Shown in pieces: positions 49,085-63,565 of a stretch of 64,000 bases of DNA. Below the pieces are notes generated by a model, which saw only the letters and a list, made by a program, of their open reading frames with translations, had not been told where the DNA came from and did no database searches. The stretch comes from Burkholderiales bacterium (GTDB lineage Bacteria; Pseudomonadota; Gammaproteobacteria; Burkholderiales; Casimicrobiaceae). How positions within the stretch are numbered: position 1 is the first letter of the stretch; every line of letters begins with the position of its first letter. The stretch lies in assembly GCA_020851235.1 (NCBI GenBank), contig JADZDD010000004.1, positions 62,001 to 126,000 on the forward strand. The letters are read 5' to 3'. A program made the translations under genes and the position numbers.

Positions 49085-49831
49085 ATGAAGACCGCCATCG
49101 TCACCGGCGCGGGCAGCGGCATCGGCCGCGCCGTCGCCACCGCGCTCCTGCAGCACGGCTATCGCGTCGCACTCGCCGGGCGGCGCCGCGAGCCGCTCGA
49201 GCAAGCGATCGCTGCCGCCGGTGCCGCGCCCGATGCGGCGCTCGCCGTGCCCACCGACGTCGCGAACCCCGAGGCCGTCGCCGCGCTCTTCGCCGAAGTC
49301 AAGGCACGCTTCGGTCGGCTCGACGTGCTCTTCAACAACGCCGGAGTCAACGCGCCGGCCGTCGAGATGGACGAGATCACGTTCGAGCAATGGAAGAGCG
49401 TCGTCGACGTCAACCTGACGGGCGTGTTCCTGTGCACGCAGCAGGCCATCCGGCTCATGAAGTCGCAGTCGCCACGGGGGGGGCGCATCATCAACAACGG
49501 ATCGATCTCGGCGCACGCCCCTCGCCCCTACTCCGCGCCCTACACGGCAACCAAGCACGCGATCACCGGGCTCACGAAGTCGACCTCGCTCGATGGCCGC
49601 AAGTACGACATCGCGTGCGGCCAGATCGACATCGGCAACGCATCGACCGACATGGCCGCACGGATGGCCACGGGCGTGCCGCAGGCCAACGGCGAGATCG
49701 CCGTCGAGCCGTTGATGGACGTCGCGCACGTGGCGAGTGCCGTCGTCTACATGGCCGGGCTGCCGCTCGACGCCAACGTGCAGTTCATGACGATCATGGC
49801 CACCAAGATGCCGCTCGTCGGACGCGGCTAG
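49085..49831 (+). CDS. SDR family oxidoreductase
   Basis: 248 residues. GGAGGAAGG precedes the ATG. The NAD(P) motif is VTGAGSGIG, the structural NNAG is in LFNNAGVN, catalytic Ser is in [10 protein letters not shown], and YTATK provides YxxxK. The C-terminus ([34 protein letters not shown]) is of the short, loop-ended kind often annotated as 'SDR family oxidoreductase' without known substrate. It is convergent with the minus-strand lipid cluster, and the stop codons overlap. Confidence 0.85.
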
Positions 49832-50841
49832 GTACCCGCCCGGACCCCCGGACGACGCTGCGCGCGAAACGACGCCAGGATCGCCTCCATCACGCGGGCC
49901 GTGCGCAACGCGGTCTCGCCGGTGCTGGGGCACCTGCCTATCCCGTTCATCTCGTCGACGATCGTCTGGATGAGCGGCTGGTGGACGTGCTCGGGGTCGC
50001 CCAGCGGGCGCTCCTCGATCGTGTCGCCGCGACACAGCAAAAGCGGCCGTGGCGAGAGCGTCGCAAAGCGCAGGCGAGCGCGCGTGCCGATGAGTTCGGT
50101 GTAGTCGTCGTCGCGGTCGGCGTCGTAGCACCACGCGCCGCTGCCGAGCGCGCCCGACGCGAAGCGATACGTCGCACCTACCGCATCCTCGGCGTCGTAG
50201 AGCCCCGCCTGATTGGCGGCGATGCCGTGCACCTCGGTGATGGGACCCAGCAGGAAGTCGAGGAAGTCGAAGGTGTGGCACACCGCCTCGAAGAAAAAGC
50301 CGCCCCCCGACAACGCCGGATTCACGCGCCACGGCACCACACCGCCGGCGAACGCGGCCGCAGGCGGGCGCGGTTGCGTGAGGTACGTCACCGCCATGCG
50401 AACCTCGCCGATCGCGCCGTCGGCGACCAGGTCGCGCACGGCCAGAAGCCGCGGCAGGGCTCGCCGGTAGTAGCCCACCCACAGCGGGACCGCGGCGGCG
50501 CGGCACGCGGCGATCATCTCCTCGCACTGCGCCGGATCGAGGGCCATCGGCTTTTCCACGTACACGGGCTTCCCCGCCGCGGCGCAACGCAATGCGTAGT
50601 CGCGGTGCGTGTCGGTCAGGGTGGCGATGTAGACGGCGTCGATGTCGTCGGCCTCGATGATCGCATCCGCATCGGTGTGCCAGCGCGGCACGCCATGCCG
50701 GCGCGCGTAATCCTCGGCCCGTGCCGCCGTGCGCCGCATGACCGCGCGCAGTTCCGAGTTGCGCGCCTTCGCGAACCCCGGGCCGCTCTTGCGCTCGGTG
50801 ACGTCGCCGCAGCCGATGATGCCCCAGCGGATGGTCCTCAT
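49828..50841 (-). CDS. Gfo/Idh/MocA family oxidoreductase
   Basis: 337 residues. The N-terminal Rossmann domain reads [23 protein letters not shown], then the family motif [10 protein letters not shown], with an alpha/beta C-terminal domain ([21 protein letters not shown]). It oxidises or isomerises sugar-type or inositol-type substrates with NAD(P). The ATG overlaps the end of the TerC gene (ATGA), so both are co-translated. It is the last gene of the long minus-strand run. Whether it belongs functionally to the lipid genes is unclear. Confidence 0.85.
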
Positions 50842-51602
50842 TTCGGGCCCCGGCTGTCGCGGTCGCTGAAGTGGGGTCGCAGCCGGATGGCTCGCGGGCG
50901 ACTGCGCCGCATGCGCAGGTTGAGCATCTCCACCATGACCGAGAACGCCATCGCGAAGTAGATGTAGCCCTTGGGCACGGTCTTGTCGAAGCCCTCGGCG
51001 ATGAGCGCAACTCCCACCACGAAGAGGAACGAGAGCGCGAGCATCTTGATCGTCGGATGCGCCGACACGAAGCGGCCGATCACCCCGGCGAACGCCATCA
51101 TGAGCGCCACCGATGCGATCACCGCGGCCACCATCACCGCGATCTCGCTCACCATGCCCACCGCGGTGATGATCGAGTCGAGCGAGAACACGAGGTCGAT
51201 GACGACCACCTGCAGGATCACGGCGGTGAACGTCGCCTTCGCCGCGCCCGAGGCATGGTCCTCGCCGCCTTCGGTGAGCTGATGGATCTCCATCGTGCTC
51301 TTCCACAGCAGGAAGATGCCACCGAAGATCAGGATCAGGTCGCGCCCCGAGATGTCCTGTTGCAAGACGGTGAACAAGGGGGCGGTGAGCCCGATGAGCC
51401 ACGACAGCAGCAAGAGCAGCCCCAGGCGCATGAACATCGCGAGGAACAGGCCGAGCCGCCGCGCAAACTCGCGCTGGTCGACCGGGAGCTTGTCGACGAG
51501 GATCGAGATGAAGATCACGTTGTCGATGCCCAGGACGAGCTCGAGCGAGGTCAGCATGGCAAAGGCGATCCATGCCTCGGGACTGGTCAGGAGGTCGAGC
51601 AT
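50838..51602 (-). CDS. TerC family integral membrane protein
   Basis: 254 residues with seven predicted helices. TerC signatures are LELVLGIDNVIFISIL with the membrane Asp, DLILIFGGIFLLWKSTMEIH, and VVVIDLVFSLDSIITAVGM. TerC-like proteins export or manage metals (Mn) or act with tellurite-resistance systems. The LpxO-like gene lies 31 nt upstream, so this gene is in the same transcript as the lipid cluster. A link could be metallation of an exoenzyme or a metal-dependent step, but this is a guess. Confidence 0.88.
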   Translation of the reverse strand: MLDLLTSPEAWIAFAMLTSLELVLGIDNVIFISILVDKLPVDQREFARRLGLFLAMFMRLGLLLLLSWLIGLTAPLFTVLQQDISGRDLILIFGGIFLLWKSTMEIHQLTEGGEDHASGAAKATFTAVILQVVVIDLVFSLDSIITAVGMVSEIAVMVAAVIASVALMMAFAGVIGRFVSAHPTIKMLALSFLFVVGVALIAEGFDKTVPKGYIYFAMAFSVMVEMLNLRMRRSRPRAIRLRPHFSDRDSRGPK

Positions 51603-51632: not shown

Positions 51633-52580
51633 TCAGCGCACGAAGAAGGCGAAGATCACGATGGCAACGAGGAGCGCGAACTTGGCGGCGTAGTAGACGT
51701 ACTTGTTCCAGCGCTTGAGCGCCTTCGCCGGGAGGCGCACGTAGTACACCCAGGAGAAGACGCGATTGAGCATCCCGATCTTGTCGCCCGGGGCGTTCTC
51801 GGTCTGCGTGGCGCGCACGATCGTGCGCTCGACCCAGTGATTGAGCCGCGTGAGCCAGCGGCTGCGCAACGGCCGCTCCACGTCGCAGAAGAGGATGAGG
51901 CGGTCGGTATCGGTGCGATTCTCCGCCCAATGGATGAACGTCTCGTCGAAGAGCACGCCTTCGCCGTCGCGGTACGCGTAGGGCACGCCGTCGACGATGA
52001 TGCGGCAGCGCTCGCTGTTGGGCGTGGCCAGACCCAGGTGGTAGCGCAGCGAGCCCGCGAATGGATCGCGGTGGCGGCCGAGGTCGCCGCCGGCCGGCAG
52101 CATGGCGAACATCGCCCCGTTGACGTTGGGAATCGACTGGACGAGCGCGACGGTCTTGGGACAAAGCGCGCGCGCCGACTCGAGCGGCGTGTCGTACCAT
52201 TTGAGGTAGAAGCGCTTCCAGCCACGGCGAAAGAACGAGTTGAAGCCGAGATCGGTGTAGCCGGTGGCCGCGCGGATGTGGCCCTCGTCGAAGAGCTTGA
52301 GCGCCTCGTCGCGAATCGTCGTCCAGTTGCGCTGCAGCGGCGCAAGCTCGGGAAACGGATCGAGTTTCAGGAACGGCGCGTTCGGCACCGCGGAAAACCC
52401 GTACATGAGCGCGTTGTACGGCGCGACGATCGTCGAATGATCGGTGAGCTGCTTCACGAAACGATGCCGCTCGCGTCCGCGCCAGTGGATGAACAGCGCC
52501 CACGAGACGTAGCCGTAGACGATGGCTGCCTTCCACGACAGGAGCGAGGCGGCGATCAGGGACGAAGTCGACGGTTCCAT
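51633..52580 (-). CDS. LpxO/OlsC-like Fe(II)/2-oxoglutarate acyl-chain hydroxylase
   Basis: 315 residues of the aspartyl/asparaginyl beta-hydroxylase family. An N-terminal membrane segment (WKAAIVYGYVSWALFIHW) and a C-terminal one (YAAKFALLVAIVIFAFFV) flank the jelly-roll core. The core has metal ligands GRHRDPFAGSLRYHLGL (HxD) and the distal His in DETFIHWAENRTDTDRLILFCDVERP. LpxO hydroxylates lipid A acyl chains and OlsC hydroxylates ornithine lipids. The protein sits 11 nt after the PPTase-acyltransferase gene, so it should modify the acyl product of this cluster. The start ATG at 52580 is set by the extent of homology. Confidence 0.82.
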   Translation of the reverse strand: MEPSTSSLIAASLLSWKAAIVYGYVSWALFIHWRGRERHRFVKQLTDHSTIVAPYNALMYGFSAVPNAPFLKLDPFPELAPLQRNWTTIRDEALKLFDEGHIRAATGYTDLGFNSFFRRGWKRFYLKWYDTPLESARALCPKTVALVQSIPNVNGAMFAMLPAGGDLGRHRDPFAGSLRYHLGLATPNSERCRIIVDGVPYAYRDGEGVLFDETFIHWAENRTDTDRLILFCDVERPLRSRWLTRLNHWVERTIVRATQTENAPGDKIGMLNRVFSWVYYVRLPAKALKRWNKYVYYAAKFALLVAIVIFAFFVR

Positions 52581-52591
52581 GCGCTTTCGGA

Positions 52592-53881
52592 TCAGGAGGC
52601 CGCGGCCGGGCGCTTGCGCCGCCGCGCCACGGCGTGCTTCCAGCGGCGATGCACCCAGTACCACTGCTCCGGACGGCGCAGCACGAAGCGCTCGAGCGCC
52701 GCGTTGTAGGCGCGGGTGGTGAGCCGGATCGCCTCGGTCGTCTGCGCGTGCTCGACCGCGGGGATCGGCGCCTCGAAGCGTAGCACGTGCGTGCCGTCGG
52801 GCTCGCGCCAGCTCGTTGCGGGCAACACCGGCGCGCCGGTCGCAAGCGCGATCACGGCGAGGCTCTTGAACGTCCAGGCCGGCGTGCCGAAAAAATCGAC
52901 CGCGATGCCATCGGGCGGGCTCGCGTGCTGGTCGAAGGGAAAGACGATGGCGTCGCCCTGTGCCAGCGCGGCCAGCATCGCATCGAGCGAGCCGCGCTTC
53001 TTGAAGACGCCGAAGCCCGCACGCTGGAATCGCCGCGTGACGAGCCCATCGAGCCAGTCCGGCTTCACCGCGCGCCGCACGAAGTGGAATCGCCCGCGCA
53101 TGTGCGGAAAGCTCGCGATGCCGGCGACCGTTGCCACCTCCCAGTTGCCGAAGTGGCCGGTGAGGAGGAGCACGCCCTTGCCGCGATGGTAGGCGTCGGC
53201 GAAGGCGTCGACGTTCTCGACCCGGACGAGGGCGAGCTTGCGTGCGGTCGAGAGCCAACGAAAGCGCAGGAACTCACCGGCAAGACGCCACAGGTGGGCG
53301 TAATGCGCCTGCGCGAGACGCTCGATCGCTGCCGCATCGAGCGTCGCGCCGTAGACGCGGCGCAGGTTGTCGAGGATCACGCGGCGACGCAACGGCACGC
53401 ATCGATAGAGGAAACGCCCGGCGGCGGGAACCTCGAGGGCGACAGGCTGCGTGATCGCCACGGCCTTGGCTGCCGTTCGGTCGTGCGTCATCGACAGCGC
53501 GATCGGTCCGAGGCGATGGCGTCCGACGAGCGCCTCGGCCCGGGGCCCCAGCAGCACGCGGGGTGCGCCGAAGTCATCGCGGACCACGGAGAAGTCGGAG
53601 GGTTCGATCTGGACCCGCGCCGCCTCGGGAGGAAAGAGCTTGACGCACGCCTCCTTGGCGGCAAAGCGCGCGGCGAGGCTCGCGGCACGGCCCGGACCCT
53701 CGCCGGCATCCGCGAGCTCGCGCTCGGTGAAAAAGCGCAGCAAGGCCGCGCGATCGCTCTCGCGCAGCAACCGTTCGATGCGCACGATCTCGACCGAGTC
53801 GATGCCGCAGCGATACGCGGGATCGACGGCCGGCGCGGCGGTACCGGTGGCGAAGCCGGACGCGACGACGCCGTCGACCAT
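52592..53881 (-). CDS. Phosphopantetheinyl transferase fused to an LpxL-like lysophospholipid acyltransferase
   Basis: 429 residues with two enzymes in one chain. Residues 20-140 are an AcpS/Sfp-type phosphopantetheinyl transferase (GIDSVEIVRIERLL with Asp28, ARFAAKEACVKLF with K76/E77/K81) that would activate the cluster ACP. Residues about 150-429 are an acyltransferase of the LpxL/HtrB fold: GHFGNWE (H243, E248) is the HX4E catalytic motif, followed by FPFDQHASPPDGIAVDFFGTPAW. It starts 7 nt after KS-2. The ORF could be read further upstream in this frame, but that lies within the KS-2 gene. Fusion of these two activities couples carrier activation to acyl transfer and is unusual. Confidence 0.83.
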   Translation of the reverse strand: MVDGVVASGFATGTAAPAVDPAYRCGIDSVEIVRIERLLRESDRAALLRFFTERELADAGEGPGRAASLAARFAAKEACVKLFPPEAARVQIEPSDFSVVRDDFGAPRVLLGPRAEALVGRHRLGPIALSMTHDRTAAKAVAITQPVALEVPAAGRFLYRCVPLRRRVILDNLRRVYGATLDAAAIERLAQAHYAHLWRLAGEFLRFRWLSTARKLALVRVENVDAFADAYHRGKGVLLLTGHFGNWEVATVAGIASFPHMRGRFHFVRRAVKPDWLDGLVTRRFQRAGFGVFKKRGSLDAMLAALAQGDAIVFPFDQHASPPDGIAVDFFGTPAWTFKSLAVIALATGAPVLPATSWREPDGTHVLRFEAPIPAVEHAQTTEAIRLTTRAYNAALERFVLRRPEQWYWVHRRWKHAVARRRKRPAAAS

Positions 53882-53888
53882 CGCACGG

Positions 53889-55157
53889 TCACGACGCGCG
53901 CACGAGGAGCGCGGCGTTGGTGCTCGCAAAGCCCCGGCACAGCACGAGCGCCACGTCGCTGCGGGGAACCTGTGCGGTCGCTGCCACGGTAAGCCCCGCG
54001 CACGCCGGGTCGAGCGTACGCAGCGTCGCGATCCCTGGCACCACCTTCGCCTGCAGTGCCGCGAGCGTAACGACGGTCTCGACGATGCCGGCGGCGGCGA
54101 TGAGGTGCCCGAACGACCACTTGAAGCCGGTAACCGGCGGCAGGTCGTCACCGAAGACGCGCCGCAGCGCGACCGCCTCGGACGCGTCCGACGCCCGCGT
54201 CCCGTTGCCGTGCGCGACGACCATGCCGACGTCACGGGGCGAAAGCCCGGCGTCGGCGAGCGCCTCGTCGATGGCGCGGACGAGACCGTCGCCGTCCTCG
54301 CGAATGGCGAGCAACCCCTGCGCTTCGCTCGCAAGACCACCGCCCAGGACCTCACCGAGCACGGGGGCGCCGCGCTCGAGCGCGGATGCTTCCGTCTCGA
54401 TGACGAGCGCGCCCGCGCCTTCACCGAACTGACTGCCATCGCGCCCGGCATCGAACGGTCGCAGCACACCCGCCGACATGAGGCCGAGCCCGTGATAGTA
54501 GAGCACCATCTGCGGCTCGATCGGCGTCTCGTGTCCGACCGCGACGATCCGATCGGCTTCGGCGGCACGCAAGGCGGCGAGCGCCTCGATGACCGCCACG
54601 AGCCCGCCAACACTGTGGCTCGTGATGCACGCATTGGTGCCCTTGAGCCCGTACTTGATTCCGATATGGCCGAGCACGTTGTTGGGCAGCGTGCGCAGGA
54701 GCCACATCGGATTGACGGTATTGGCGAGTTCGCGGCCAAATGCGCCGAGGTCACCGCCGGCTTGCGTCATCAGCGGAAGGAAGTCGTACTGGTTCTCGAA
54801 GTTGCCGCCCCCCGAACCGACGATCACGCCGCTGCGGTCGCTGTACGCCGCAGCGGCCGGCGGCGGCAGCGTGTCCCGATGCGCGACGAGGCCCGATTGC
54901 TCGAGCGCGCACCCCGCCGCGTAGAGGCCCACGAGGTCGGTGCGCCGGATGAGCTTGTGCAGCTTGCGGTCGGCGACCATCGCCCGCGCGTCGAAGTCGG
55001 GGATCTCCGCTGCGACCTGCGCGGGCCAGTGCGTGGTGTCCCACTGTTCGATCCGGCGCAGCGACGAGGTCCCGGCGCGCACCGCAGCGAGGATTTCTGC
55101 CGGCTGGCGCCCGGCGGCGCACACGGCGCCGCTTCCGGTGATGACGATGCGCGTCAT
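53889..55157 (-). CDS. Beta-ketoacyl-ACP synthase (second KS of the cluster)
   Basis: 422 residues, KAS I/II fold. The active site Cys177 is in TNACITSHSVGGL, the two His in VVAHGNGTRASD and KWSFGHLIAAAG, so the Cys-His-His triad is intact and it is not a chain-length factor. The oxyanion-side segment (TSHS rather than SGGQ) is unusual. The gene overlaps KS-1 by 4 nt (ATGA), and the PPTase-acyltransferase gene follows 7 nt after its stop. A separate role from KS-1, such as chain initiation or a different chain length, is likely. Confidence 0.86.
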   Translation of the reverse strand: MTRIVITGSGAVCAAGRQPAEILAAVRAGTSSLRRIEQWDTTHWPAQVAAEIPDFDARAMVADRKLHKLIRRTDLVGLYAAGCALEQSGLVAHRDTLPPPAAAAYSDRSGVIVGSGGGNFENQYDFLPLMTQAGGDLGAFGRELANTVNPMWLLRTLPNNVLGHIGIKYGLKGTNACITSHSVGGLVAVIEALAALRAAEADRIVAVGHETPIEPQMVLYYHGLGLMSAGVLRPFDAGRDGSQFGEGAGALVIETEASALERGAPVLGEVLGGGLASEAQGLLAIREDGDGLVRAIDEALADAGLSPRDVGMVVAHGNGTRASDASEAVALRRVFGDDLPPVTGFKWSFGHLIAAAGIVETVVTLAALQAKVVPGIATLRTLDPACAGLTVAATAQVPRSDVALVLCRGFASTNAALLVRAS

Positions 55158-56482
55158 GGCCCCGCCTCCTCGCCCCGGCCGCCGGGACGGCCGTCGACCT
55201 CCTCCGGATGGCGCAGGACGAGACAGCTGTTGGAGCCGCCGAAGCCGAACGAATTGGACAGCGCAGCACGGACCCGCGTGCGCGTGGGCGTGGTCACGAG
55301 GTTGAGGTCGCAGTCGGCATCGCGCTCGCGCAGGTTCGCGTTGACGGGAAGCTCGCCCCGCGCGATCGCGAGCGCGCAAAGCGCCCCTTCGACCGCACCC
55401 GCCGCAGCGATGAGGTGCCCCATCGTGCTCTTGGTCGAACTCACCGGAACGCTGCGACCGCGCGCACCGAAGACGGCGTGCAGCGCGGCCGTCTCGCTGC
55501 GGTCGTTCATGAGCGTCGAGGTGCCGTGCGCGTTGACGTAGTCGATGGTATCGACCGTGGCGCCGGCGTCGGCCAACGCCGCGCGCATCGCCTGGATCGG
55601 GCCGTCGCCGTCGGGCGGCGAGTCGGTGATGCGGTACGACGACAGCGAATTGCCGTCCCCCGCGAGTTCCGCGTAGATCCGGGCGCCACGGGCGCGGGCG
55701 AGCGCCCAGTCCTCGAGCACGACGAACCCCGCCCCCTCGCCGAGCAGGAATCCGTTGCGGGTGGCGTCGAACGGCCGGCTCGCGCGCTCGGGCGTGTCGT
55801 TGTCGGTCGACAGCGCCGAGAGCAGGCAAAAGCCGCTGATGCCGATCGGGCTGATCATCGAATCGAAGCCGCCGGCGAGCACGCGGTCGACGCGGCCGCG
55901 CCGAAGCGCCTTGAGCGCCGTGCCGAGCGCCTGGCCGCCGGAGGCACAGGCCGTATGCACCGACGTCGTGTATCCGGCGATGCCGAAGCGGCGCGTGAGC
56001 AGGGCGAGACCCTGCGCCGCCTGGCCCCGGCAGAAGACGAGCGGATCGTTGGCGGCGTCGTCGCTCAGCAGCAGCCCCGCGTCGAGCGTGCCGTCGGCAG
56101 CCGCGTGCGCGTGCGTGCGCTCGAGGTCGGCGAAGTCCGCGGTCATCATGCCCGCCCCGACGGCGCAGCCCCAGCGCGGCGCCGTCTCGGCCGTGGGTCG
56201 AACCCCGGCGTCGACGAGCGCCTGCTCGGCCGCCTCGAGGGCGAAGTGGTGCGAGCGGTTGGCGAGCTTGAGCAACCGCCGATCGGTGACGAGCCGGTTG
56301 CGAAAGTCCTTGACCTCGGCCGCGATGCGCGTCGCGAAGCCCGACGCATCGAAGAGCGTGATGGGCGCGCCGCCGCTGCGACCGGCAAGCAGCGCTCGCC
56401 ACGTCGTGGCGACGTCGTTGCCGACCGGCGTCACGAGGCCGATCCCGGTGATCGCCACCCGCCGCCGCGCCGGCGCGCTCAT
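55154..56482 (-). CDS. Beta-ketoacyl-ACP synthase, FabF-like (first KS of the cluster)
   Basis: 442 residues. MSAPARRRVAITGIGLVTPVGND opens the KAS fold. The nucleophile Cys179 is in VHTACASGGQALG. His residues are in VNAHGTSTLMND and KSTMGHLIAAAG. The C-terminal motif SNSFGFGGSNSCLVLR is complete. It elongates acyl-ACP with malonyl-ACP. Start and stop overlap the neighbouring dehydratase and KS-2 genes (ATGA on both sides), which means tight translational coupling. It differs from housekeeping FabF mainly by context. Confidence 0.88.
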   Translation of the reverse strand: MSAPARRRVAITGIGLVTPVGNDVATTWRALLAGRSGGAPITLFDASGFATRIAAEVKDFRNRLVTDRRLLKLANRSHHFALEAAEQALVDAGVRPTAETAPRWGCAVGAGMMTADFADLERTHAHAAADGTLDAGLLLSDDAANDPLVFCRGQAAQGLALLTRRFGIAGYTTSVHTACASGGQALGTALKALRRGRVDRVLAGGFDSMISPIGISGFCLLSALSTDNDTPERASRPFDATRNGFLLGEGAGFVVLEDWALARARGARIYAELAGDGNSLSSYRITDSPPDGDGPIQAMRAALADAGATVDTIDYVNAHGTSTLMNDRSETAALHAVFGARGRSVPVSSTKSTMGHLIAAAGAVEGALCALAIARGELPVNANLRERDADCDLNLVTTPTRTRVRAALSNSFGFGGSNSCLVLRHPEEVDGRPGGRGEEAGP

Positions 56483-57330
56483 GCCGCACCTCCGGCCGCG
56501 ACGGGACCGATGACGACTCGCGCTGTGGCGACGGTGCGCTCGGACGCCTGCGCCGTGAGGAAGAACGTGGCCTCGTCGTCGCCCACCTCGCGCCGTTGCG
56601 CCGAAAGTTCGAGCGTCGCGCCGGGCGGCGTGAACGAGCGCACCTTGACGTGCGTCATCCGTCGCGGCGCGAGTCGCGCGTCCCTCGGCCAGGGCCCCGC
56701 GCTGCGGGCAAGGCGCAATGCCACGTCGATCTGCGCTTCGAGCATGAGCGTGGCAGGAAACACCGGGCGCCGTGGAAAGTGATCGTTGAAGAACGCCGCG
56801 GTGGACGGCACCGCGAGCGTGGCGCGGGCCCAATCGGGCTGCGTGACGGGGAGCGCCACCGGAGCGGCAAGGTCGATACCCCGAAAGCGGCCCGGTGCGG
56901 CGCCGTCGCCGGTGAGCGTGCCGAGAAAGGCGCGCAGCGCCGCCGGATCGTCGAACTCGGCCAACGGCAGCATCGGTCCCAGACAGTCGACGAGCTCGAT
57001 CGCGCGCTCGCCGGCGATTTCGGCGTGACCGTGATACGCGACCGCCTCGTCGTCGCAATGCTCGATCTCGACCGCGAGCGTGAGCGTGTCGCCGGGCAAC
57101 GCGCCGCGCCGGAAGCGCGTCGTCGTCGCCAGCGCGGCGACGGGACGTCCGCGAAAGTCGATCTGCGCCATCGCCACCCACGCCGCGAGCTGACCCACCG
57201 CCTCGGCCACGAGGCACGGCGGAAACGCCGCCACGTGCCGCGGAATGGCAAACGTCGCCCGCGCCCGCAGCGGCGGCTCGAAGACGTCGATGCGATCGAC
57301 GAACGAGAAGGCGGCAAAGTGATCAGGCAT
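56479..57330 (-). CDS. Double-hotdog 3-hydroxyacyl-ACP dehydratase (tandem FabA/FabZ-like)
   Basis: 283 residues with two hotdog folds. The second (about 165-283) carries the FabZ/FabA active-site pattern FFNDHFPRRPVFPATLMLEAQIDVAL, with catalytic His and Glu. The first (1-130) has a degenerate FAIPRHVAAFPPCLVAEAVGQLAAW, with the Glu kept. Tandem hotdog dehydratases occur in polyunsaturated-fatty-acid, aryl-polyene and related secondary lipid pathways. It overlaps KS-1 by 4 nt and follows the ACP gene (44-nt gap). Confidence 0.82.
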   Translation of the reverse strand: MPDHFAAFSFVDRIDVFEPPLRARATFAIPRHVAAFPPCLVAEAVGQLAAWVAMAQIDFRGRPVAALATTTRFRRGALPGDTLTLAVEIEHCDDEAVAYHGHAEIAGERAIELVDCLGPMLPLAEFDDPAALRAFLGTLTGDGAAPGRFRGIDLAAPVALPVTQPDWARATLAVPSTAAFFNDHFPRRPVFPATLMLEAQIDVALRLARSAGPWPRDARLAPRRMTHVKVRSFTPPGATLELSAQRREVGDDEATFFLTAQASERTVATARVVIGPVAAGGAA

Positions 57331-57374
57331 CCGTCAATCCGGCACCCGCGCCGACGCGGGCGGCACGCGATCGT

Positions 57375-57800
57375 TCAGCTCGCGGCACCCGTCTCGCGCT
57401 GCGCCTGCAAGACGAGCTTGCAAAACGTCTCGGGCGTGAACAGGCGCGGGATGTCGGCAACCTTGAGCGGCGTCTTGAAGCGGTCCGCGGGAACCTCGGA
57501 CAGGTACGCCTTGAGCTGCACCATCCCGCCGTCGGTCACGAGGCCCTTCTGCTCGAACTCGGCCTCGGAGAGCGTGCCGCGCGCGTTCTCCACGATCTTT
57601 CCGCGCGGGATCTTCACCTTGAACGCGCGCTCGAGGCGAAACACCATGTCGAGGAAGTCGATCGACTCGGCGTTGAGATCGTTGATCAGCGACGCCGTGG
57701 GCTTCACTTCGTCGAGCTCGACGCCAAGCGCGTCGGCGATGGTCTGCGCCACGGTGGGGTACACCGCGTCGATGTCAGCCTGCGTGATGGGTGTGGCCAT
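57375..57800 (-). CDS. Acyl carrier protein with C-terminal extension
   Basis: 141 residues. The N-terminal 80 residues form an ACP: LGVELDEVKPTASLINDLNAESIDFLDMVFRLERAF. Ser46 in AES-I-D is the phosphopantetheine site, and the helix II is acidic. The last 60 residues (LKAYLSEVPADRFKTPLKVADIPRLFTPETFCKLVL) are not found in FAS ACPs (about 78 aa) and may dock partner enzymes. The FabG-type gene lies 9 nt upstream. It should be activated by the PPTase domain of the fused protein downstream. Confidence 0.85.
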   Translation of the reverse strand: MATPITQADIDAVYPTVAQTIADALGVELDEVKPTASLINDLNAESIDFLDMVFRLERAFKVKIPRGKIVENARGTLSEAEFEQKGLVTDGGMVQLKAYLSEVPADRFKTPLKVADIPRLFTPETFCKLVLQAQRETGAAS

Positions 57801-57809
57801 GTCTTCCTC

Positions 57810-58580
57810 TCATTCCATTTTGAATCCGCCGTCGACCGTGAGCACCTGCCCCGTGATGTAGCTCGCAAGATCCGAGCACAGGAACCACACGGCATGGGCA
57901 ACCTCGGCGGCGGTACCGAATCGCTTCATCAGGATGCGCGCCTTGACGTCGTCGCCGGCGAGCTCGCGCACCGCCTGCGACATCTCGGTGTCGATCACGC
58001 CCGGCGCCACCGCGTTCACCGCGATCTTGCGCGCGGCGAGCTCGACGGCGAGCGCGCGCGTGAAGGCATCGATCGCCCCCTTGCTCGCCGCGTAGTTCGT
58101 CTGCCCGCGCCCGCCCTTGGCCCCCGACACCGACGAAATGTTCACGATGCGCCCGCGGCGCCGCGAGATCATGTGCGGCACCACCGCGCGCGTGACGTTG
58201 AACACGCCCGTCACATTGGTTGCGAGCACGTCGGCGACGTCGTCGTCGCTCATGCCCGCGAGCGGGTTGTCGCGGATCAGTCCGGCGTTGTTGACCAGCA
58301 CGTCGATGCGCTCGGCGCGCTCGACGAGCGCCTCGACCGCCTGCGCGCAGGCCGCCATGTCACGCACGTCGACCTGGACCGCGGTCAGCGCATGCCCCTT
58401 CGCCGCCTCAGCGGCCACGAGCGCCTGCGCCGCCTCGTGATGGCCACGATAGAAGAAGGTGACCTGCGCGCCGTCGGCGGCAAGCGTCTGGACGATCGCT
58501 CGCCCGATGCCGCGGCTGCCGCCCGTGACCAGCGCGACCTTGCCCTGCAAGCCGGAAGCGATCGGCACCGCCACGCTCAT
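57810..58580 (-). CDS. 3-oxoacyl-ACP reductase, FabG-type SDR
   Basis: 256 residues. VTGGSRGIGRA cofactor motif, NNAGLIRDNPLAGMSDDD, NISSVSGAKGGRGQTNYAASKGAIDAF (catalytic Ser and YxxxK), and VAPGVIDTEM. VLTVDGGFKM ends the chain, all as in FabG. It reduces the beta-keto group made by the ketosynthases. The start at 58580 overlaps the FabL stop by 4 nt. The longer upstream frame is inside the FabL gene. Confidence 0.88.
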   Translation of the reverse strand: MSVAVPIASGLQGKVALVTGGSRGIGRAIVQTLAADGAQVTFFYRGHHEAAQALVAAEAAKGHALTAVQVDVRDMAACAQAVEALVERAERIDVLVNNAGLIRDNPLAGMSDDDVADVLATNVTGVFNVTRAVVPHMISRRRGRIVNISSVSGAKGGRGQTNYAASKGAIDAFTRALAVELAARKIAVNAVAPGVIDTEMSQAVRELAGDDVKARILMKRFGTAAEVAHAVWFLCSDLASYITGQVLTVDGGFKME

Positions 58581-59332
58581 CCCGAGATGGCAAAGCCGCC
58601 GTCGACGACGAGCGTGTGGCCGTTGATCATCGCCGCCTCGGGCAAGCACAGCAGGTACACCGCACCTGCAACGTCGTCCACCGTGAGCGTCGGTCCCGCC
58701 GGCGTGCGCGCGGCGAAGTCGGCCAGCAGCGCATCGCGATTGGGAAAATGCGCGAGCGCATCGGTGTCGACGACGCCGGCGCTCACGACGTTGACGCGAA
58801 TCCCGCGCGGCCCCAGTTCCTGCGCCAGCGCGCGGGCCAGGGCCTCGAGCGCGGCCTTGGACGCGCCCACGAAGCCGTACCCCGGCAGGGCGCGCTGCGC
58901 ACCGAGGCTCGACATCGCGATGATGCGCCCCCCGTTTCGCATGAGCGGCACGGCCCGCTGGGCGAGCAGATTGAGCGCCAGCGCATTGGTCTCGAGGCAC
59001 CAGCGCCAGTGCTTGAGCGTCATCTCCATCGTCGGCTTCAAGACGCCGCTCGCGGCGTTGGACACGACGATGTCGAGGCGGTCGAAATCCTTCGCGATCA
59101 CGGCAAAGAGCTCGTCGACGCTATCGGGCACCCCCACGCTCGCCTGCACGGCGACGGCGCGGCGCCCGAGCGCGCGGATCCCGGCGCACAGCGCCTCGGC
59201 TGGCTCGGCGCTGTTGTAGTAGTTGACGATGACGTCGCACCCCGCACCGGCGAGCTTGCGCGCCACCGCGCCGCCGATGCCACGCGCCGCACCCGTGACG
59301 AGTGCCACCTTGCCTGCCAATGCTCCCGCCAT
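58577..59332 (-). CDS. Enoyl-ACP reductase, FabL type
   Basis: 251 residues of the SDR fold with features of FabL, the Bacillus NADPH enoyl-ACP reductase III. It has SNAASGVLKPTMEM, MSSLGAQRALPGYGFVGASKAALEAL with Y152 and K159 spaced Y-x6-K (the enoyl-reductase spacing, not YxxxK), and VVSAGVVDTDALAHFPNRD. These segments match FabL almost residue by residue. This makes it the chain-saturating step of the cluster. It would overlap the role of a housekeeping FabI/FabV. Betaproteobacteria rarely carry fabL in their core FAS, so a dedicated lipid pathway is suggested. Confidence 0.85.
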   Translation of the reverse strand: MAGALAGKVALVTGAARGIGGAVARKLAGAGCDVIVNYYNSAEPAEALCAGIRALGRRAVAVQASVGVPDSVDELFAVIAKDFDRLDIVVSNAASGVLKPTMEMTLKHWRWCLETNALALNLLAQRAVPLMRNGGRIIAMSSLGAQRALPGYGFVGASKAALEALARALAQELGPRGIRVNVVSAGVVDTDALAHFPNRDALLADFAARTPAGPTLTVDDVAGAVYLLCLPEAAMINGHTLVVDGGFAISG

Positions 59333-59412: not shown

Positions 59413-60558
59413 TCATTCTAACGTGCCACCCGCCGTCGTCGTGCGCATCGGCGCGGCTCGCAGGTAGCGCTGCGCCTCGATCACCCAGAATTTCTTGATC
59501 GTGTACCAGACGTCGGCGAGCCACGGAAGGTTGGGGGCCGCCGTTTCCGGCGGCGCGACGGTGGTCCCGGGGACGTAGGCGTCGATCCATTTCCGGGCCG
59601 CGGGGTCGCCGGGAACGTCGGCCCCCAGCGGGACGAAGATATGGTTGTTGGCCATCGACAACGTCATGTTGCGCACGCGCACCTTGTCGCTGCCGTAAAA
59701 ATCGCGTTCCTTCTCGGTTCCGGGGAACGTCCAGGCGATGAAATCGAAATCGACCCAGTAGCCGGTGAACTCTTCGACGGTGTCGGGGATCTCGCGCAGC
59801 TTGCCGATGAGGCTCCACTGGTTGGGGAGGAAGAAGGCGGCCCCGCCCGCGCTCAGCGCGCTGGCGTAGCCGATGCGCATGCCCACCACCGGCTGCGTGC
59901 GGCCGGTCAGCGGGTCGATGATGGCCGTGCGGTGCTCGGGGAAATCGGTCACCGGATCCCACACCGGCACCGCCCCGGCATACTCGCCGGCGAGAACGTG
60001 GAGCACCTTGACCGCCTGCATGCCTCCCTGGCTGTGCCCGACGAGCAACGGCGCGAGGCCGTCCTTCTCGTAGTACCACGCGACGATGCCGGCCAGGCGC
60101 TCCGCATCCTCGTAGGGGCTGTACGACCAGGCGCCGTCGCCCGGACGACGGATGCGATCCTCGGGGTAACCCATCGCGACGAGGAACTCGCCGAACGAGC
60201 GCATGATGAGATAGACGGGATAGATGCCGCCGTGCAGGAGCATGAGCCGCGGCGTCGGCCCCTGGGCGAGGAGTGCGACGTCGGCCGCCGTGACGTGGCC
60301 AGGATCGAGCGCGAGGATGCGCTTCGCGACCGGTGCCGGAACCTGCGCCCGTGGTGCCGCCGTGTCGGTGGCACGTGGTTGCGGCGCCGCGCAGGCAGCG
60401 AGCACCACCGTGAGCGCCACGACGAGGACGATGCGCCACGGCCTTGCCGCCTCGCGGTTGCCGGATCGCGGCCCGCCGCGGTACGCGATCGGCGGCGCCG
60501 ATCGGTCGCCCGGATGTCGATCCCGTCCCGTCAGCAGGACCCGAGCTTGCGTGCGCAT
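59413..60558 (-). CDS. Exported alpha/beta-hydrolase lipoprotein (second paralogue)
   Basis: 381 residues from the ATG at 60558. The N-terminal basic stretch and LVVALTVVLAAC lipobox predict a lipoprotein. The hydrolase core shows RLMLLHGGIYPVYLIMRSFGEFLVAMGYP, nucleophile elbow LVGHSQGGMQAV, and ANNHIF for the late His region. It is clearly related to the hydrolase at 61832-62821 (GHSQGG, MGYPE, DPVTG...RPVVG, EFTG). It overlaps the condensation-like gene by 28 nt. Esterase, lipase or acyl-transfer activity in the periplasm is inferred. Confidence 0.75.
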   Translation of the reverse strand: MRTQARVLLTGRDRHPGDRSAPPIAYRGGPRSGNREAARPWRIVLVVALTVVLAACAAPQPRATDTAAPRAQVPAPVAKRILALDPGHVTAADVALLAQGPTPRLMLLHGGIYPVYLIMRSFGEFLVAMGYPEDRIRRPGDGAWSYSPYEDAERLAGIVAWYYEKDGLAPLLVGHSQGGMQAVKVLHVLAGEYAGAVPVWDPVTDFPEHRTAIIDPLTGRTQPVVGMRIGYASALSAGGAAFFLPNQWSLIGKLREIPDTVEEFTGYWVDFDFIAWTFPGTEKERDFYGSDKVRVRNMTLSMANNHIFVPLGADVPGDPAARKWIDAYVPGTTVAPPETAAPNLPWLADVWYTIKKFWVIEAQRYLRAAPMRTTTAGGTLE

Positions 60559-61835
60559 GATTGCATCGCCGCCGTGATGCGATCGATCTCCGCGCGCGTG
60601 AACGCACTGGGCCGCCAGGACACGCCGATGTGCATGCCGTCGCCGACCGACGCCGGCGCCAGCACGAGCGGCGAGAACGGACCGGTGGAGATCGCCCGCA
60701 GATAGTGCAGGATCGGCGCCTCCCCCACCCCCGCCTTCCACATCGCCTCGACGTTGAGCGCCGAGACCCCGCCCCAGACGGGATACGCCTTGGCGTACAT
60801 CTGCTTGTGCTGCTCGGGGGTCATGAAGCGCCAGGCGACGCCGACTCCGCTCAGCAGGCACAGCGTCTGCAGGTAGAGCTTGCGCCGTCGCATGCGTTGT
60901 GTCTGCTCATGCACGGCGTGCGCGAGGGTTTCGAGGCTCGTTCCCGGCGGCACGAGGTGCGAGACGAAAAACGAGCTCAGGAACTGGCCGAACACCTCCC
61001 GGGTCCCCGGCTCGAGCTCGCCGCGCAGGTTGATGACGCAGGCGATGCCGACCTCGCGCCGGCGCGGGGCGGCAAGCCGGTCCGGAATCTGCGCAGCAAT
61101 CGCGTCCAGGAGCATCGCAAGCAGCATGTCGTTGACCGTCACGCCCCACTGCTTGGCCGTGCGGCGCACCGCGGCGTGGATCCCGGGCGTGAATTCGATC
61201 GAGGTGAACGCGTTGTACCGGCTCTCGCCGTGCGGGTAGCGCGGACGCACGAGACGTCGCGAGCGCAACAGCATCCAGGGCAGGAAGTGAAACCCGAGAT
61301 AGAACGCAAGGAGGTTGCGGCGGAAGAGTCGCCCATAGGGGCGCGGATACAGGTCGGGGGCCGGCTCGTTGTCGGGATAGGTCCCATCGTAACGGGCGGC
61401 GATGTCTTGCAGGAGCGCCACGATCGAATCGCCCCCGGCGATGACGTGATCGTAGGCCACGCCGACGTGGAAAGAGCCCCCGTTACGCACCGCGAAGAAG
61501 CGCAGCGGCTCGTACGCCGACTCCCCCGGTGCCGGTCCGAAGGGGGTATTGAGGTGTCGCTCCATCTCGCGCTCGAGGACGGACATCGCCTCGCCATTCG
61601 CATCGTGGACCGGCAACGTCACGCGCACGGCCCCTCCCGCATATTCGTAGCGCCGGCGCTTCGTATCGAGCGCGAGCCGCGTGATGCCCGTCGCCGCGAG
61701 ATGGGCCGCGATCGCGGCCTCGAGGCGTTCGGCGTCGAGCGTGCCGGGAAGCTCGGCGACGTGCACGGCGTTGTACGGGTAGAGCCCGCGCCAGCGCAGC
61801 ATCGCCGACTGGAAGAGGTTGAAGCGCCCCTTCAC
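60531..61835 (-). CDS. Condensation-domain-like acyltransferase (CoA-dependent acyltransferase superfamily)
   Basis: 434 residues from a GTG preceded by GGAGGAG that overlaps the stop of the upstream hydrolase gene. The chloramphenicol-acetyltransferase-like fold is shown by FNLFQSAMLRWRGLYPYNAVHVAEL at the start and GVAYDHVIAGGDSIVALL in the active site. The usual HHxxxDG is H130-xxx-G here: His kept, Asp changed to Gly. WGVTVNDMLLAMLLDAIA and a C-terminal WRPSAFTRAEIDRITAAM follow. PapA/WSD-like enzymes of this fold join acyl groups to an alcohol or amine. It could esterify the cluster's acyl-ACP product. Confidence 0.75.
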   Translation of the reverse strand: MKGRFNLFQSAMLRWRGLYPYNAVHVAELPGTLDAERLEAAIAAHLAATGITRLALDTKRRRYEYAGGAVRVTLPVHDANGEAMSVLEREMERHLNTPFGPAPGESAYEPLRFFAVRNGGSFHVGVAYDHVIAGGDSIVALLQDIAARYDGTYPDNEPAPDLYPRPYGRLFRRNLLAFYLGFHFLPWMLLRSRRLVRPRYPHGESRYNAFTSIEFTPGIHAAVRRTAKQWGVTVNDMLLAMLLDAIAAQIPDRLAAPRRREVGIACVINLRGELEPGTREVFGQFLSSFFVSHLVPPGTSLETLAHAVHEQTQRMRRRKLYLQTLCLLSGVGVAWRFMTPEQHKQMYAKAYPVWGGVSALNVEAMWKAGVGEAPILHYLRAISTGPFSPLVLAPASVGDGMHIGVSWRPSAFTRAEIDRITAAMQSCARKLGSC

Positions 61836-62821
61836 CGCGCCGACTCCTCCGTGCGCAACCGGCGCTGTCCCTCGACGCACCAGTGACGGCGAATCGAATG
61901 CCACAGATCGGCGGCGAGTTCGAGGTTGCGCACATCGACGCCTTCGGGGAGCGCTGGCGGCGCGTCGGGGCGCCAGGCGAGGATGTAGGCGCGCGTCGCG
62001 GGCTGGGCCGCGAGGTGCGCCATGAGCGGTGCGCCGATGTGGCTGTAGCGCGCCGGAAGCAGCACGTTACGCACATGGCTCGTACCGGTGGCGAGGTACG
62101 GCTCGTCCTCCGCGAGCGTGCCGGCGATGGGGTCCCAGGCAATGGCAAAGCCCGTGAACTCGAGCGCCGTGTCCGGCACCTTGCGCAGCAGCGGGAGCAT
62201 CGTCCATTGCCCGAGGAGCACGCGCGCGAGCTTGCCGGTGGCGATCGCCGCGGCGAAGGCGAGCGTCAGCCCGACGACCGGCCGCTCGATGCCCGTCACG
62301 GGATCGCGAATGACGGTGCGCGGCAGCGTCTCCCCCGTGGCCGGATCCACGAGTGCGATCGCCGGATCGAAGGCGCCGGCCAGCGTGTGCAGCGTGCGAA
62401 CGACGAGCATGCCGCCCTGGCTATGCCCGATGAGCATCGGGCGCAACCTGTCGTGCTCGTAATGCCAGGCGAGCATCCCGGCCACGTGGGCGCTGTCGCC
62501 GAAACTCGAGCGCGTGAGGCTGCCGTCCAGCGGGTCGCGCAACGACGACTCCGGATAGCCCATCGCGATGAGGAACCGTGCGAAGGGCTCCATCGTCACC
62601 ACGGGGATGCTGCCGTGCAGGAGCACGATGCGCGGTGCCGGCATTCCGGCGAGCACGACCGTCGCCTCGCCGTTGCCGAGCCGGTCGCAGTCGAGCGCGA
62701 GCAGCGCTGCGCGATGCGACGGTGCCGGAACTTGCGCACCGATCGCCGGGCCCGCGATCAGCGCCGCGACGGAGACGACAGCGACAACGAGCGCGCAGGC
62801 GGGGCAGGACAGGCGCGACAC
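61832..62821 (-). CDS. Exported alpha/beta-hydrolase (first paralogue)
   Basis: 329 residues. The signal peptide (MSRLSCPACALVVAVVSVAALIAGPAIGAQ) leads to a hydrolase with RIVLLHGSIPVVTMEPFARFLIAMGYPESSL, the elbow LIGHSQGGMLVV and VRNVLLPARYSHIGA near the expected His. It shares gene order and long sequence blocks with the hydrolase at 59413-60558, which suggests local duplication. It is the second gene in the minus-strand run (46-nt gap from the methyltransferase-like gene). The reaction is unknown, perhaps release or remodelling of the acylated product outside the cytoplasm. Confidence 0.75.
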   Translation of the reverse strand: MSRLSCPACALVVAVVSVAALIAGPAIGAQVPAPSHRAALLALDCDRLGNGEATVVLAGMPAPRIVLLHGSIPVVTMEPFARFLIAMGYPESSLRDPLDGSLTRSSFGDSAHVAGMLAWHYEHDRLRPMLIGHSQGGMLVVRTLHTLAGAFDPAIALVDPATGETLPRTVIRDPVTGIERPVVGLTLAFAAAIATGKLARVLLGQWTMLPLLRKVPDTALEFTGFAIAWDPIAGTLAEDEPYLATGTSHVRNVLLPARYSHIGAPLMAHLAAQPATRAYILAWRPDAPPALPEGVDVRNLELAADLWHSIRRHWCVEGQRRLRTEESAR

Positions 62822-62866: not shown

Positions 62867-63532
62867 TTATCGCAGGTGCCCCGTTTCGCCACCCGGTCGC
62901 GGCGAACGCGGGATGAAGCGCCCGGTATGCCGCATGTACGTCGCATAGCGCGCGCCGTGCCGGGCCAACAGGTGTCGCTCCTCGTTGTGCGCCTTGATCA
63001 CCATCATCGTGATGTGCGTGACGCCGATCGCCACCATGAGCCCCGTGGGTACGACGACCATCGTGCAGCCCATGAGCAGGATCGACAGCGCGTAGATCGG
63101 ATGGCGCACGCGCGAGAACATCCCTTCGGTGATGAGCATCTGCTCCTCGTCGGTGACGGCCATGCGCCAATGCCGGCCCATGCGCCGCCAGGACTGGATC
63201 GTCAGCACGAGGCAGGCGAGCGCCGTCACCATCGCGACGTGGCGCAGGGCGGCGTACGGCATGGCGCTCGCAAACGCCGGCAAGCCCAAAGGCGGCGTCG
63301 AACGGGACAAGGCGAGCCAGGGCAGCGCGACCCACGCGGCGACGACCGGCAGCCAGACGAGTCCCAGCACGCGTTCGAGCGGCTGGCGGGGCAACACGCG
63401 CGCCGGGCGGGCCCCGTGCTTGCGCGACCGGCGGCGGACGCGAACGATCATCGCGCCAACGCCGAACCAGTAGGCAGAAACGGTGATCGCGACGAGGGTG
63501 CCGGGAATGTCCATGACGAGTCGAGGCGCCAT
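62867..63532 (-). CDS. Isoprenylcysteine carboxyl methyltransferase (ICMT/PEMT)-like membrane protein
   Basis: 221 residues with about five helices. The SAM-side motif is GMFSRVRHPIYALSILLMG, followed by ERHLLARHGARYATYMRHTGRFIP at the C-terminus. Both are standard in bacterial ICMT-like and phospholipid methyltransferase-like proteins. It may methylate a lipid or isoprenoid carboxylate, or be a non-enzymatic member. It is first in the minus-strand run, 33 nt from the divergent protease-like gene. An ATG at 63514 is an alternative start. Confidence 0.78.
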   Translation of the reverse strand: MAPRLVMDIPGTLVAITVSAYWFGVGAMIVRVRRRSRKHGARPARVLPRQPLERVLGLVWLPVVAAWVALPWLALSRSTPPLGLPAFASAMPYAALRHVAMVTALACLVLTIQSWRRMGRHWRMAVTDEEQMLITEGMFSRVRHPIYALSILLMGCTMVVVPTGLMVAIGVTHITMMVIKAHNEERHLLARHGARYATYMRHTGRFIPRSPRPGGETGHLR

Positions 63533-63565
63533 TGTACGGACCGCCCCCCGCGCTATCCTTGACCG

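What the first reader, a model, noticed from the sequence alone, without database searches (positions are those of the whole stretch)
51633..59332. Self-contained secondary fatty-acid-synthase cluster with PPTase, acyltransferase and hydroxylase
On one strand, with ATGA-type overlaps or short gaps, lie FabL-type enoyl reductase, FabG, ACP, double-hotdog dehydratase, two complete ketosynthases, a PPTase-acyltransferase fusion and an LpxO/OlsC-like hydroxylase. All steps of acyl-chain building, ACP activation, transfer and hydroxylation are present. Unlike aryl-polyene clusters it has an enoyl reductase and lacks LolA-like and MMPL genes. The product is expected to be a saturated, hydroxylated acyl group attached to a lipid.
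Basis: partly seen in the sequence, partly recalled or inferred. Interest (0 to 1): 0.85.

Follow-up and report, generated by a model that had tools for sequence, protein, structure and literature searches.

The report
Dedicated membrane fatty acid synthesis operon
This is a second set of fatty-acid-building genes, shared by several unrelated bacterial groups, that probably builds one special long saturated fat chain for the outer membrane; its counterpart in Legionella is a candidate maker of that genus's hallmark very long membrane fats.

Summary
One claim is wrong: only KS1 is a complete ketosynthase. KS2 has Ser182 where the catalytic cysteine belongs, so it looks like a chain-length-factor partner. 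LpxO is an accessory, beside the fusion in 12 of 27 fusion-bearing genomes. The core FabL-(FabG)-ACP-DH-KS1-KS2-AT recurs in order in Betaproteobacteria, Verrucomicrobiota, Synechococcus, NC10 and Legionellales. The layout parallels the rhizobial acpXL-lpxXL cluster for very-long-chain lipid A acids, but the four XL family cut-offs tested all fail. In the family that includes Legionella, known for 27-oxo-octacosanoic acid in lipid A, 69 of 77 genomes have this ACP and none reaches the AcpXL cut-off. Best explanation: a KS:CLF-type synthase makes a long or very long saturated chain on its own ACP, an LpxL/PatA-type enzyme transfers it to lipid A or a similar lipid, and LpxO hydroxylates it in some species. 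Chain length, acceptor and heterodimer are inferred, not shown. New variant of a known kind.

The parts
58577..59332 (-). FabL-type enoyl-ACP reductase (P0001, 251 aa), Tyr152-x6-Lys159
   Evidence: NCBIfam NF005975 336.5 bits, cut-off 328; Tyr 87 of 88, Lys 88 of 88 rows
57810..58580 (-). FabG-type 3-oxoacyl-ACP reductase (P0002, 256 aa), Tyr-x3-Lys; overlaps fabL by 4 bases
   Evidence: next to the ACP in 32 of 32 non-Legionellales loci with enough flank, 0 of 19 Legionellales loci
57375..57800 (-). Dedicated acyl carrier protein (P0003, 141 aa), Ser46 in AESIDFLD, with extra residues (roughly 75-120) that look inserted between helix III and helix IV
   Evidence: Pfam PP-binding; Ser 97 of 97 rows; model pLDDT 93.6; ACP folds align over residues 7-139
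56479..57330 (-). Double-hotdog 3-hydroxyacyl-ACP dehydratase (P0004, 283 aa), probably one composite Glu43/His184 site
   Evidence: Pfam FabA, NCBIfam FabZ matches below cut-off; columns
55154..56482 (-). KS1, complete FabF-family ketosynthase (P0005, 442 aa), Cys179/His319/Lys351/His356
   Evidence: Cys in 84 of 84 readable rows of 88; one supported group, 100/99
53889..55157 (-). KS2, ketosynthase homologue without the nucleophile, chain-length-factor-like (P0006, 422 aa), Ser182
   Evidence: one supported group, 99/99
52592..53881 (-). Fusion of an AcpS-type phosphopantetheinyl transferase (about residues 20-145) and an LpxL/PatA-family acyltransferase (about 150-415, HFGNWE motif)
   Evidence: Pfam ACPS and Lip_A_acyltrans, the latter from profile position 42; model and fold matches to PatA, LpxM and AcpS; residues
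51633..52580 (-). LpxO-like hydroxylase (P0008, 315 aa), accessory gene
   Evidence: NCBIfam LpxO 437.8 bits, cut-off 500; OlsC 104.8; tree with stand-alone copies
59413..60558 (-). Putative lipoprotein/hydrolase-like protein with GHSQGG (P0009), upstream accessory module; start inferred, function by reading only
   Evidence: no Pfam match; beside the core in relatives and some Verrucomicrobiota
60531..61904 (-). Condensation/PapA-like acyltransferase homologue (P0010), upstream accessory module
   Evidence: Pfam Condensation and PapA_C, both below cut-off; 14 loci, window included, in two phyla
61832..62821 (-). Second hydrolase-like protein (P0011), upstream accessory module; function by reading only
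   Evidence: no Pfam match
62867..63541 (-). PEMT/ICMT-like membrane methyltransferase (P0014), upstream accessory module; start inferred
   Evidence: Pfam PEMT 27.4 bits, cut-off 25

Best explanation
The operon encodes a dedicated type II fatty acid synthase of the KS:CLF kind. The AcpS domain of the fusion loads phosphopantetheine on Ser46 of the operon's own ACP (inferred). KS1 pairs with KS2, which lacks the nucleophile and probably sets chain length (inferred). FabG, the double-hotdog DH and FabL complete each round, so the chain is saturated (active-site residues shown, activity inferred). Housekeeping enzymes supply malonyl-ACP and perhaps the starter (inferred). The finished chain, most likely long or very long, passes from this ACP to lipid A or a closely similar glycolipid by the LpxL/PatA-type domain (fold and HX4E motif shown; acceptor inferred). 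In this species the LpxO-like enzyme then hydroxylates the chain, by analogy with lipid A 2-hydroxylation (inferred). It works like the rhizobial acpXL-lpxXL system but is a separate lineage with its own enoyl reductase and carrier activation.
For: Complete reductive cycle with conserved active-site residues. KS2 nucleophile column: Ser 20, Thr 15, Ala 29, Gly 2, Cys 14 of 80 readable rows. KS1 and KS2 each form one supported group. Core order kept across phyla. Rhizobial-type XL loci share the layout, and their FabF2XL lacks the cysteine in the three rows aligned. KS2 and FabF2XL lie on one side of a 99/96 branch. In the family that includes Legionella tucsonensis, 69 of 77 genomes have this ACP and 0 of 77 reach the AcpXL cut-off; [quoted passage not shown] An LpxO-like gene, close to a lipid A hydroxylase family, adjoins the fusion in 12 of 27 genomes.
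Against: No lipid data for the window organism. The Legionella link is co-occurrence only, and there KS2, DH and AT are distant (about 40-45, 26-32 and 40-47% identity). The AT lacks the N-terminal stretch of LpxL and best matches PatA, which acylates a different lipid. The KS2-FabF2XL grouping involves a branch of length 3.4 and may be an artefact; KS1 with FabF1XL is unsupported (60/34). Verrucomicrobiota KS2 keep the cysteine (14 of 14 readable), and two Synechococcus ATs have lost the motif Glu. The ACP fold comparison does not single out AcpXL. LpxO scores below its cut-off. Very-long-chain acids in Synechococcus or Verrucomicrobiota were not searched for.
Confidence: 0.5

Rival explanations
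1. The same dedicated saturated acyl-ACP synthase, but the acceptor is not lipid A: the PatA-like transferase, with the upstream condensation/PapA-like protein, hydrolase-like proteins and methyltransferase, builds another surface glycolipid or secreted lipid.
For: The AT lacks the LpxL N-terminal stretch and best matches PatA in fold; the upstream module lies beside the core in Betaproteobacteria and some Verrucomicrobiota.
Against: The condensation-like gene was not found in the long-enough Synechococcus, NC10 and Legionellales loci, nor in the Alcaligenaceae and Akkermansiaceae loci, so it is not the core function. LpxO linkage and the Legionella pattern point to lipid A.
Confidence: 0.33
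2. A redundant or stress-induced backup of housekeeping fatty acid synthesis, or a FabL-based escape from enoyl-reductase inhibitors, making ordinary C16-C18 chains.
For: FabL gives triclosan resistance in Bacillus subtilis (PMC9260719, passages); most elongation enzymes are present.
Against: A backup needs no enlarged own ACP, cysteine-less KS partner, carrier-activating domain and acyltransferase kept together across phyla.
Confidence: 0.08
3. A variant aryl polyene or other unsaturated polyketide pathway.
For: KS:CLF pair, separate ACP, KR, DH and an acyltransferase resemble the aryl polyene layout (PMC8253772, passages).
Against: Enoyl reductase in 50 of 51 loci; no acyl-ACP synthetase, LolA-like or RND neighbour among the genes scanned; KS1 scores 421 bits for FabF and 217-236 for PRK07103, PRK09185 and PRK09116 (that these include aryl polyene enzymes is recall).
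Confidence: 0.04

Closest known systems
Rhizobial acpXL-fabZXL-fabF2XL-fabF1XL-adh-lpxXL cluster (very-long-chain lipid A fatty acids)
   Same: Own ACP, dehydratase, one complete and one cysteine-less ketosynthase and an LpxL-family acyltransferase together, in nearly the same order (order from PMC11901934 and PMC5613085, passages; loci)
   Different: Ours has FabL, an AcpS domain and a fused double-hotdog DH, no adh gene, and the complete KS comes first; ACP, both KS and AT fall below the XL cut-offs. FabG is no difference: three of six XL loci read carry a FabG-like SDR too
Aryl polyene (Ape) clusters
   Same: KS:CLF-type pair, KR, DH, ACP, acyltransferase
   Different: Enoyl reductase present; no acyl-ACP synthetase, LolA/LolB-like or RND gene seen nearby
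LpxO lipid A hydroxylase
   Same: Full-length match, 437.8 bits over profile 1-295 of 297
   Different: Below the curated cut-off of 500
PatA and LpxM acyltransferases; AcpS
   Same: Domain folds of the fusion
   Different: Fused in one chain, with the PPTase in front of an acyltransferase that lacks the first 41 profile positions
Legionella operon (in L. pneumophila probably around lpg0359-lpg0362: tags from PMC13200437 passages, assignment by recall; that species was not fetched)
   Same: FabL, ACP, DH, KS1, KS2, AT in order in other Legionella species
   Different: No adjacent FabG and no PPTase domain in the 19 loci counted, KS2 with Ala at the nucleophile column; in L038 two opposite-strand genes lie between FabL and ACP; L103 shows no FabL

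Membership tests
Rhizobial AcpXL/LpxXL VLCFA cluster | ACP over the NF005079 cut-off of 83 bits | tested here: not met
   42.9 bits. That NF005079 marks AcpXL rests on the loci behind its hits: KS pair, adh-like and LpxL-type genes follow the ACP in L141 and L145
Rhizobial AcpXL/LpxXL VLCFA cluster | KS pair over the NF005076 (629) and NF005084 (320) cut-offs | tested here: not met
   P0005 319.4, P0006 53.1 bits; the pair in L141 scores 759.8 and 606.8
Rhizobial AcpXL/LpxXL VLCFA cluster | Acyltransferase over the NF005120 cut-off (273) | tested here: not met
   92.7 bits; L141 485.8
Rhizobial AcpXL/LpxXL VLCFA cluster | Layout ACP-DH-two KS-LpxL-type AT with one cysteine-less KS | tested here: met
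Rhizobial AcpXL/LpxXL VLCFA cluster | Product is a very-long-chain acid on lipid A | not testable with these tools
   needs lipid analysis
Aryl polyene cluster | Acyl-ACP synthetase, LolA/LolB-like and RND transporter genes nearby | tested here: not met
   none among the 19 neighbours scanned with Pfam; list read in PMC8253772 passages. Genes further off in the window were not scanned
Aryl polyene cluster | No enoyl reductase (polyene product) | tested here: not met
   FabL over cut-off and conserved
KS:CLF systems | A KS with the Cys-His-His set next to a paralogue without the cysteine | tested here: met
   14 Verrucomicrobiota KS2 do have Cys
KS:CLF systems | Physical heterodimer | not tested
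   no complex prediction on hand
FabL enoyl reductase | NF005975 cut-off and Tyr-x6-Lys | tested here: met
   336.5 against 328 bits; Tyr152/Lys159
LpxO | NF033391 cut-off of 500 bits | tested here: not met
   437.8 bits, full length, E 1.6e-131; resembles LpxO, not filed as a member
LpxL/LpxM lipid A acyltransferase | HX4E motif and full LpxL-type domain including its N-terminal region | tested here: inconclusive
   motif and fold met; the Pfam match starts at profile position 42

The most novel reading that the evidence does not exclude
This operon family is the very-long-chain fatty acid synthase of Legionella lipid A, a second lineage of KS:CLF-type outer-membrane fatty acid synthases beside the rhizobial XL system, and its presence in Betaproteobacteria, Verrucomicrobiota, NC10 and Synechococcus predicts unusually long acyl chains, hydroxylated here by the LpxO-like enzyme, in their outer membranes.
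Probability: 0.4. Interest if true: 0.75.

Novelty: new variant of a known kind. Interest (0 to 1): 0.6.

Why it matters
Legionella's hallmark C28 lipid A acids are long known (PMC7867332 passages cite 1992 work). In the listings and passages I saw from searches, no specific gene set was assigned to them, and the AcpXL family is absent from the 77 genomes sampled. One passage cuts the other way: PMC5613085 says, citing Ardissone 2011 (not read), that a five-gene cluster is found in all bacteria that make such lipid A, so the Legionella operon may already have been noticed. The operon gives one testable candidate, extends dedicated outer-membrane fatty acid synthesis to several phyla, and its fusion couples carrier activation to chain delivery in one protein.

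Tried and rejected
The first count of KS2 residues was wrong: followed a cysteine five residues before the nucleophile column and suggested that most KS2 are intact (53 Cys, 27 Asn there). The joint alignment and an HMM alignment corrected this.

In one search, 21 FabG rows show Ile at the Tyr column; I read them as loci where the search took FabL for FabG and left them out of the FabG claims (not checked row by row).

Rows are not genomes: unnamed and named loci overlap in part. L029/L048, L033/L049, L045/L050 and L039/L122 are the same contigs by length and are counted twice; two LpxO rows are identical.

Dropped: aryl polyene pathway; OlsC function; TerC and MocA as cluster members (TerC lies beside the operon in 2 of the loci, L029 and L030). 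A promoter scan was not run.

29 of the 80 named loci were left out of the counts as too short. L073 was not held for the ketosynthase search, so 5 of 6 handles were searched.

Full report
What is there. Between 51633 and 59332, on the minus strand, eight genes follow each other: FabL, FabG, ACP, double-hotdog dehydratase, KS1, KS2, an AcpS-LpxL fusion and an LpxO-like hydroxylase. Three pairs overlap by four bases; the other gaps are 7 to 44 bases. The genome has a housekeeping set elsewhere: by reading, a FabG, a 79-residue AcpP and FabF side by side on contig C6, and two more LpxL-family matches on contig C38. So the block is a second fatty acid synthesis system.

Active sites (counts are rows with some duplicates). 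FabL exceeds its family cut-off and has the Tyr-x6-Lys spacing of enoyl reductases (rule from passages of PMC9260719). ACP Ser46 is in 97 of 97 rows. The dehydratase keeps Glu43 in 93 of 94 and His184 in 91 of 91 readable rows, while the second-domain acidic residue varies, which fits one composite site in a pseudo-dimer. The acyltransferase His is in 76 of 76 and the Glu in 74 of 76; both exceptions are Synechococcus. PPTase Asp, Glu and Lys are in 47, 46 and 47 of 47.

KS2 is not a complete ketosynthase. A joint alignment and an HMM alignment place Ser182 of KS2 at the position of the catalytic cysteine. Over 80 readable KS2 rows of 81 the residue is Ser in 20, Thr in 15, Ala in 29, Gly in 2 and Cys in 14; all 14 are Verrucomicrobiota. 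KS1 has Cys in 84 of 84 readable rows. My first count used the wrong column and is withdrawn. The pair resembles the KS and chain-length-factor pair ApeO-ApeC of aryl polyene synthesis (start of the abstract of PMC8358021; passages of PMC8253772). That the two proteins form a heterodimer is inference.

Distribution. With the fusion protein as query, 21 of 22 genomes of the genus (own included), 5 of 15 others of the family and 1 of 24 from other families of the order match at E below 1e-100 (some are partial at contig ends). In a class-wide sample 8 of 369 match at 1e-40, own included; six of the other seven match only the acyltransferase part. The ACP profile finds only the own genome among 398 sampled from the phylum, but 69 of 77 in the family of G101, taken as Legionellaceae (53 of the 58 best assemblies; two of the eight misses are 0.5 Mb genomes). 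Of these, 51 have enough flank. On the same strand, FabL lies within 6 kb upstream of the ACP in 50; DH follows in 50, KS1, KS2 and AT in 49 each; FabG adjoins in 32 of 32 outside Legionellales and 0 of 19 within; the PPTase domain is seen in 28 of 32 and 0 of 19; LpxO in 2. Groups: Betaproteobacteria and other Gammaproteobacteria 18, Verrucomicrobiota 11, Synechococcus 2, NC10 1, Legionellales 19. One Legionella-side locus outside this set, L041, does have FabG.

Lineage. In a tree of 64 ketosynthases, 22 KS1 and 22 KS2 rows each form one side of a supported branch (100/99 and 99/99), apart from 14 other ketosynthases and six XL rows. Within both, the Legionella side separates from the rest. 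FabF2XL, which lacks the cysteine and carries Glu there in the three rows aligned, lies on the KS2 side of a 99/96 branch, but on a branch of length 3.4, so long-branch attraction is possible; KS1 with FabF1XL has only 60/34.

Comparison with the rhizobial XL system. Its gene order, acpXL-fabZXL-fabF2XL-fabF1XL-adh-lpxXL, is described in PMC11901934 and PMC5613085 (passages). Six unnamed loci found with the NF005079 model were read; L145 shows ACP, FabZ-like, two KS, an SDR, adh-like and LpxL-like genes, and L141 two KS, adh-like and LpxL-like genes behind the ACP. The window proteins fail the XL cut-offs: ACP 42.9 against 83, KS1 319.4 against 629, KS2 53.1 against 320, AT 92.7 against 273 bits. 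L141 passes with 759.8, 606.8 and 485.8 bits for the two KS and the AT. So the operon works like that system but is not filed as a member.

The Legionella argument. [quoted passage not shown] None of the 77 genomes has an ACP over the AcpXL cut-off; 69 have weaker matches, and the same eight genomes miss in both searches; the rows compared lie at the same places as the operon ACP. One paper lists lpg0359 as a putative ACP and lpg0361 and lpg0362 as FabB-type enzymes without a special role (PMC13200437, passages); that these are the operon's genes is recall, since L. pneumophila was not fetched. The operon is thus my best candidate for those acids, by co-occurrence only. Against its being unnoticed: PMC5613085 says, citing Ardissone 2011, which I did not read, that a five-gene cluster is found in all bacteria with such lipid A.

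The fusion and the carrier. The fusion model (mean pLDDT 88.0) matches PatA, LpxM and AcpS folds. The acyltransferase match starts at profile position 42, and the 281-residue Legionella version also starts late in the LpxL-type profiles. This leaves the acceptor open. In the ACP model (mean pLDDT 93.6) known ACP folds align over residues 7-139 with mostly 70-85 residues, so the fourth helix seems to be 123-139 and the extra residues an insertion, not a tail.

Accessory genes. LpxO scores 437.8 bits, below its cut-off of 500, and only 104.8 for OlsC. Of the 27 fusion-bearing genomes, 12 have an LpxO match within about 1.2 kb on the same contig; some others, such as G018 and G016, have the fusion near a contig end. 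In a 21-row tree, nine of ten copies away from the operon form two supported groups without linked copies; the tenth (G023) lies at a contig end; the linked copies are not resolved as one group. 2-hydroxylation of lipid A is known for LpxO (recall; a title in the listing). Upstream, a PEMT-like, two hydrolase-like and a condensation/PapA-like gene continue the strand; the condensation-like family occurs in 14 loci, window included, of proteobacteria and Verrucomicrobiota and was not seen in the other groups, so it is optional.

Judgement. Shown: a conserved second synthase gene set with a saturating cycle, one KS with and one without the nucleophile, its own carrier and a membrane-lipid type acyltransferase. 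Inferred: heterodimer, chain length, acceptor, hydroxylation. I give 0.85 to a dedicated saturated acyl synthase with lipid transfer, and 0.5 to the fuller statement with long chains on lipid A or a similar glycolipid.

Noticed in passing
L141:2856-4076, L145:3633-4784 and L146 (FabF2XL): FabF2XL has Glu where the catalytic Cys belongs and no His in the usual HGT motif, so the rhizobial-type XL system also seems to use a KS plus a cysteine-less partner (three rows).
   Followed up: partly
L037:9209-10459: The PPTase domain of this fusion has Arg in place of the catalytic Glu while the acyltransferase motif is kept.
   Followed up: no
L059 and L062, acyltransferase: Both Synechococcus acyltransferases have Ala or Thr in place of the Glu of the HX4E motif.
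   Followed up: no
KS2 of Verrucomicrobiota (14 loci among L060-L081): Only Verrucomicrobiota KS2 have Cys at the nucleophile column (14 of 14 readable), so the loss elsewhere may be later, or regained.
   Followed up: partly
window 50838-51602 and 49828-50829: A TerC-family membrane protein and a GFO/IDH/MocA oxidoreductase follow on the same strand, TerC 30 bases after LpxO; TerC is kept beside it in L029 and L030 only among the loci.
   Followed up: partly
G000:C26, about 9.7-15.4 kb: Two very long ketosynthase-containing open frames (2294 and 1663 aa), perhaps a type I polyketide synthase, in the same genome.
   Followed up: no
L102 and L107: In these Legionella species the operon lies a few kb from ribosomal protein genes and an ssb-like gene.
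   Followed up: no
L090: The record title names Bordetella parapertussis, but its neighbouring genes are shared with bins titled Alcaligenaceae and Burkholderiaceae; the label of this metagenome bin is doubtful.
   Followed up: no
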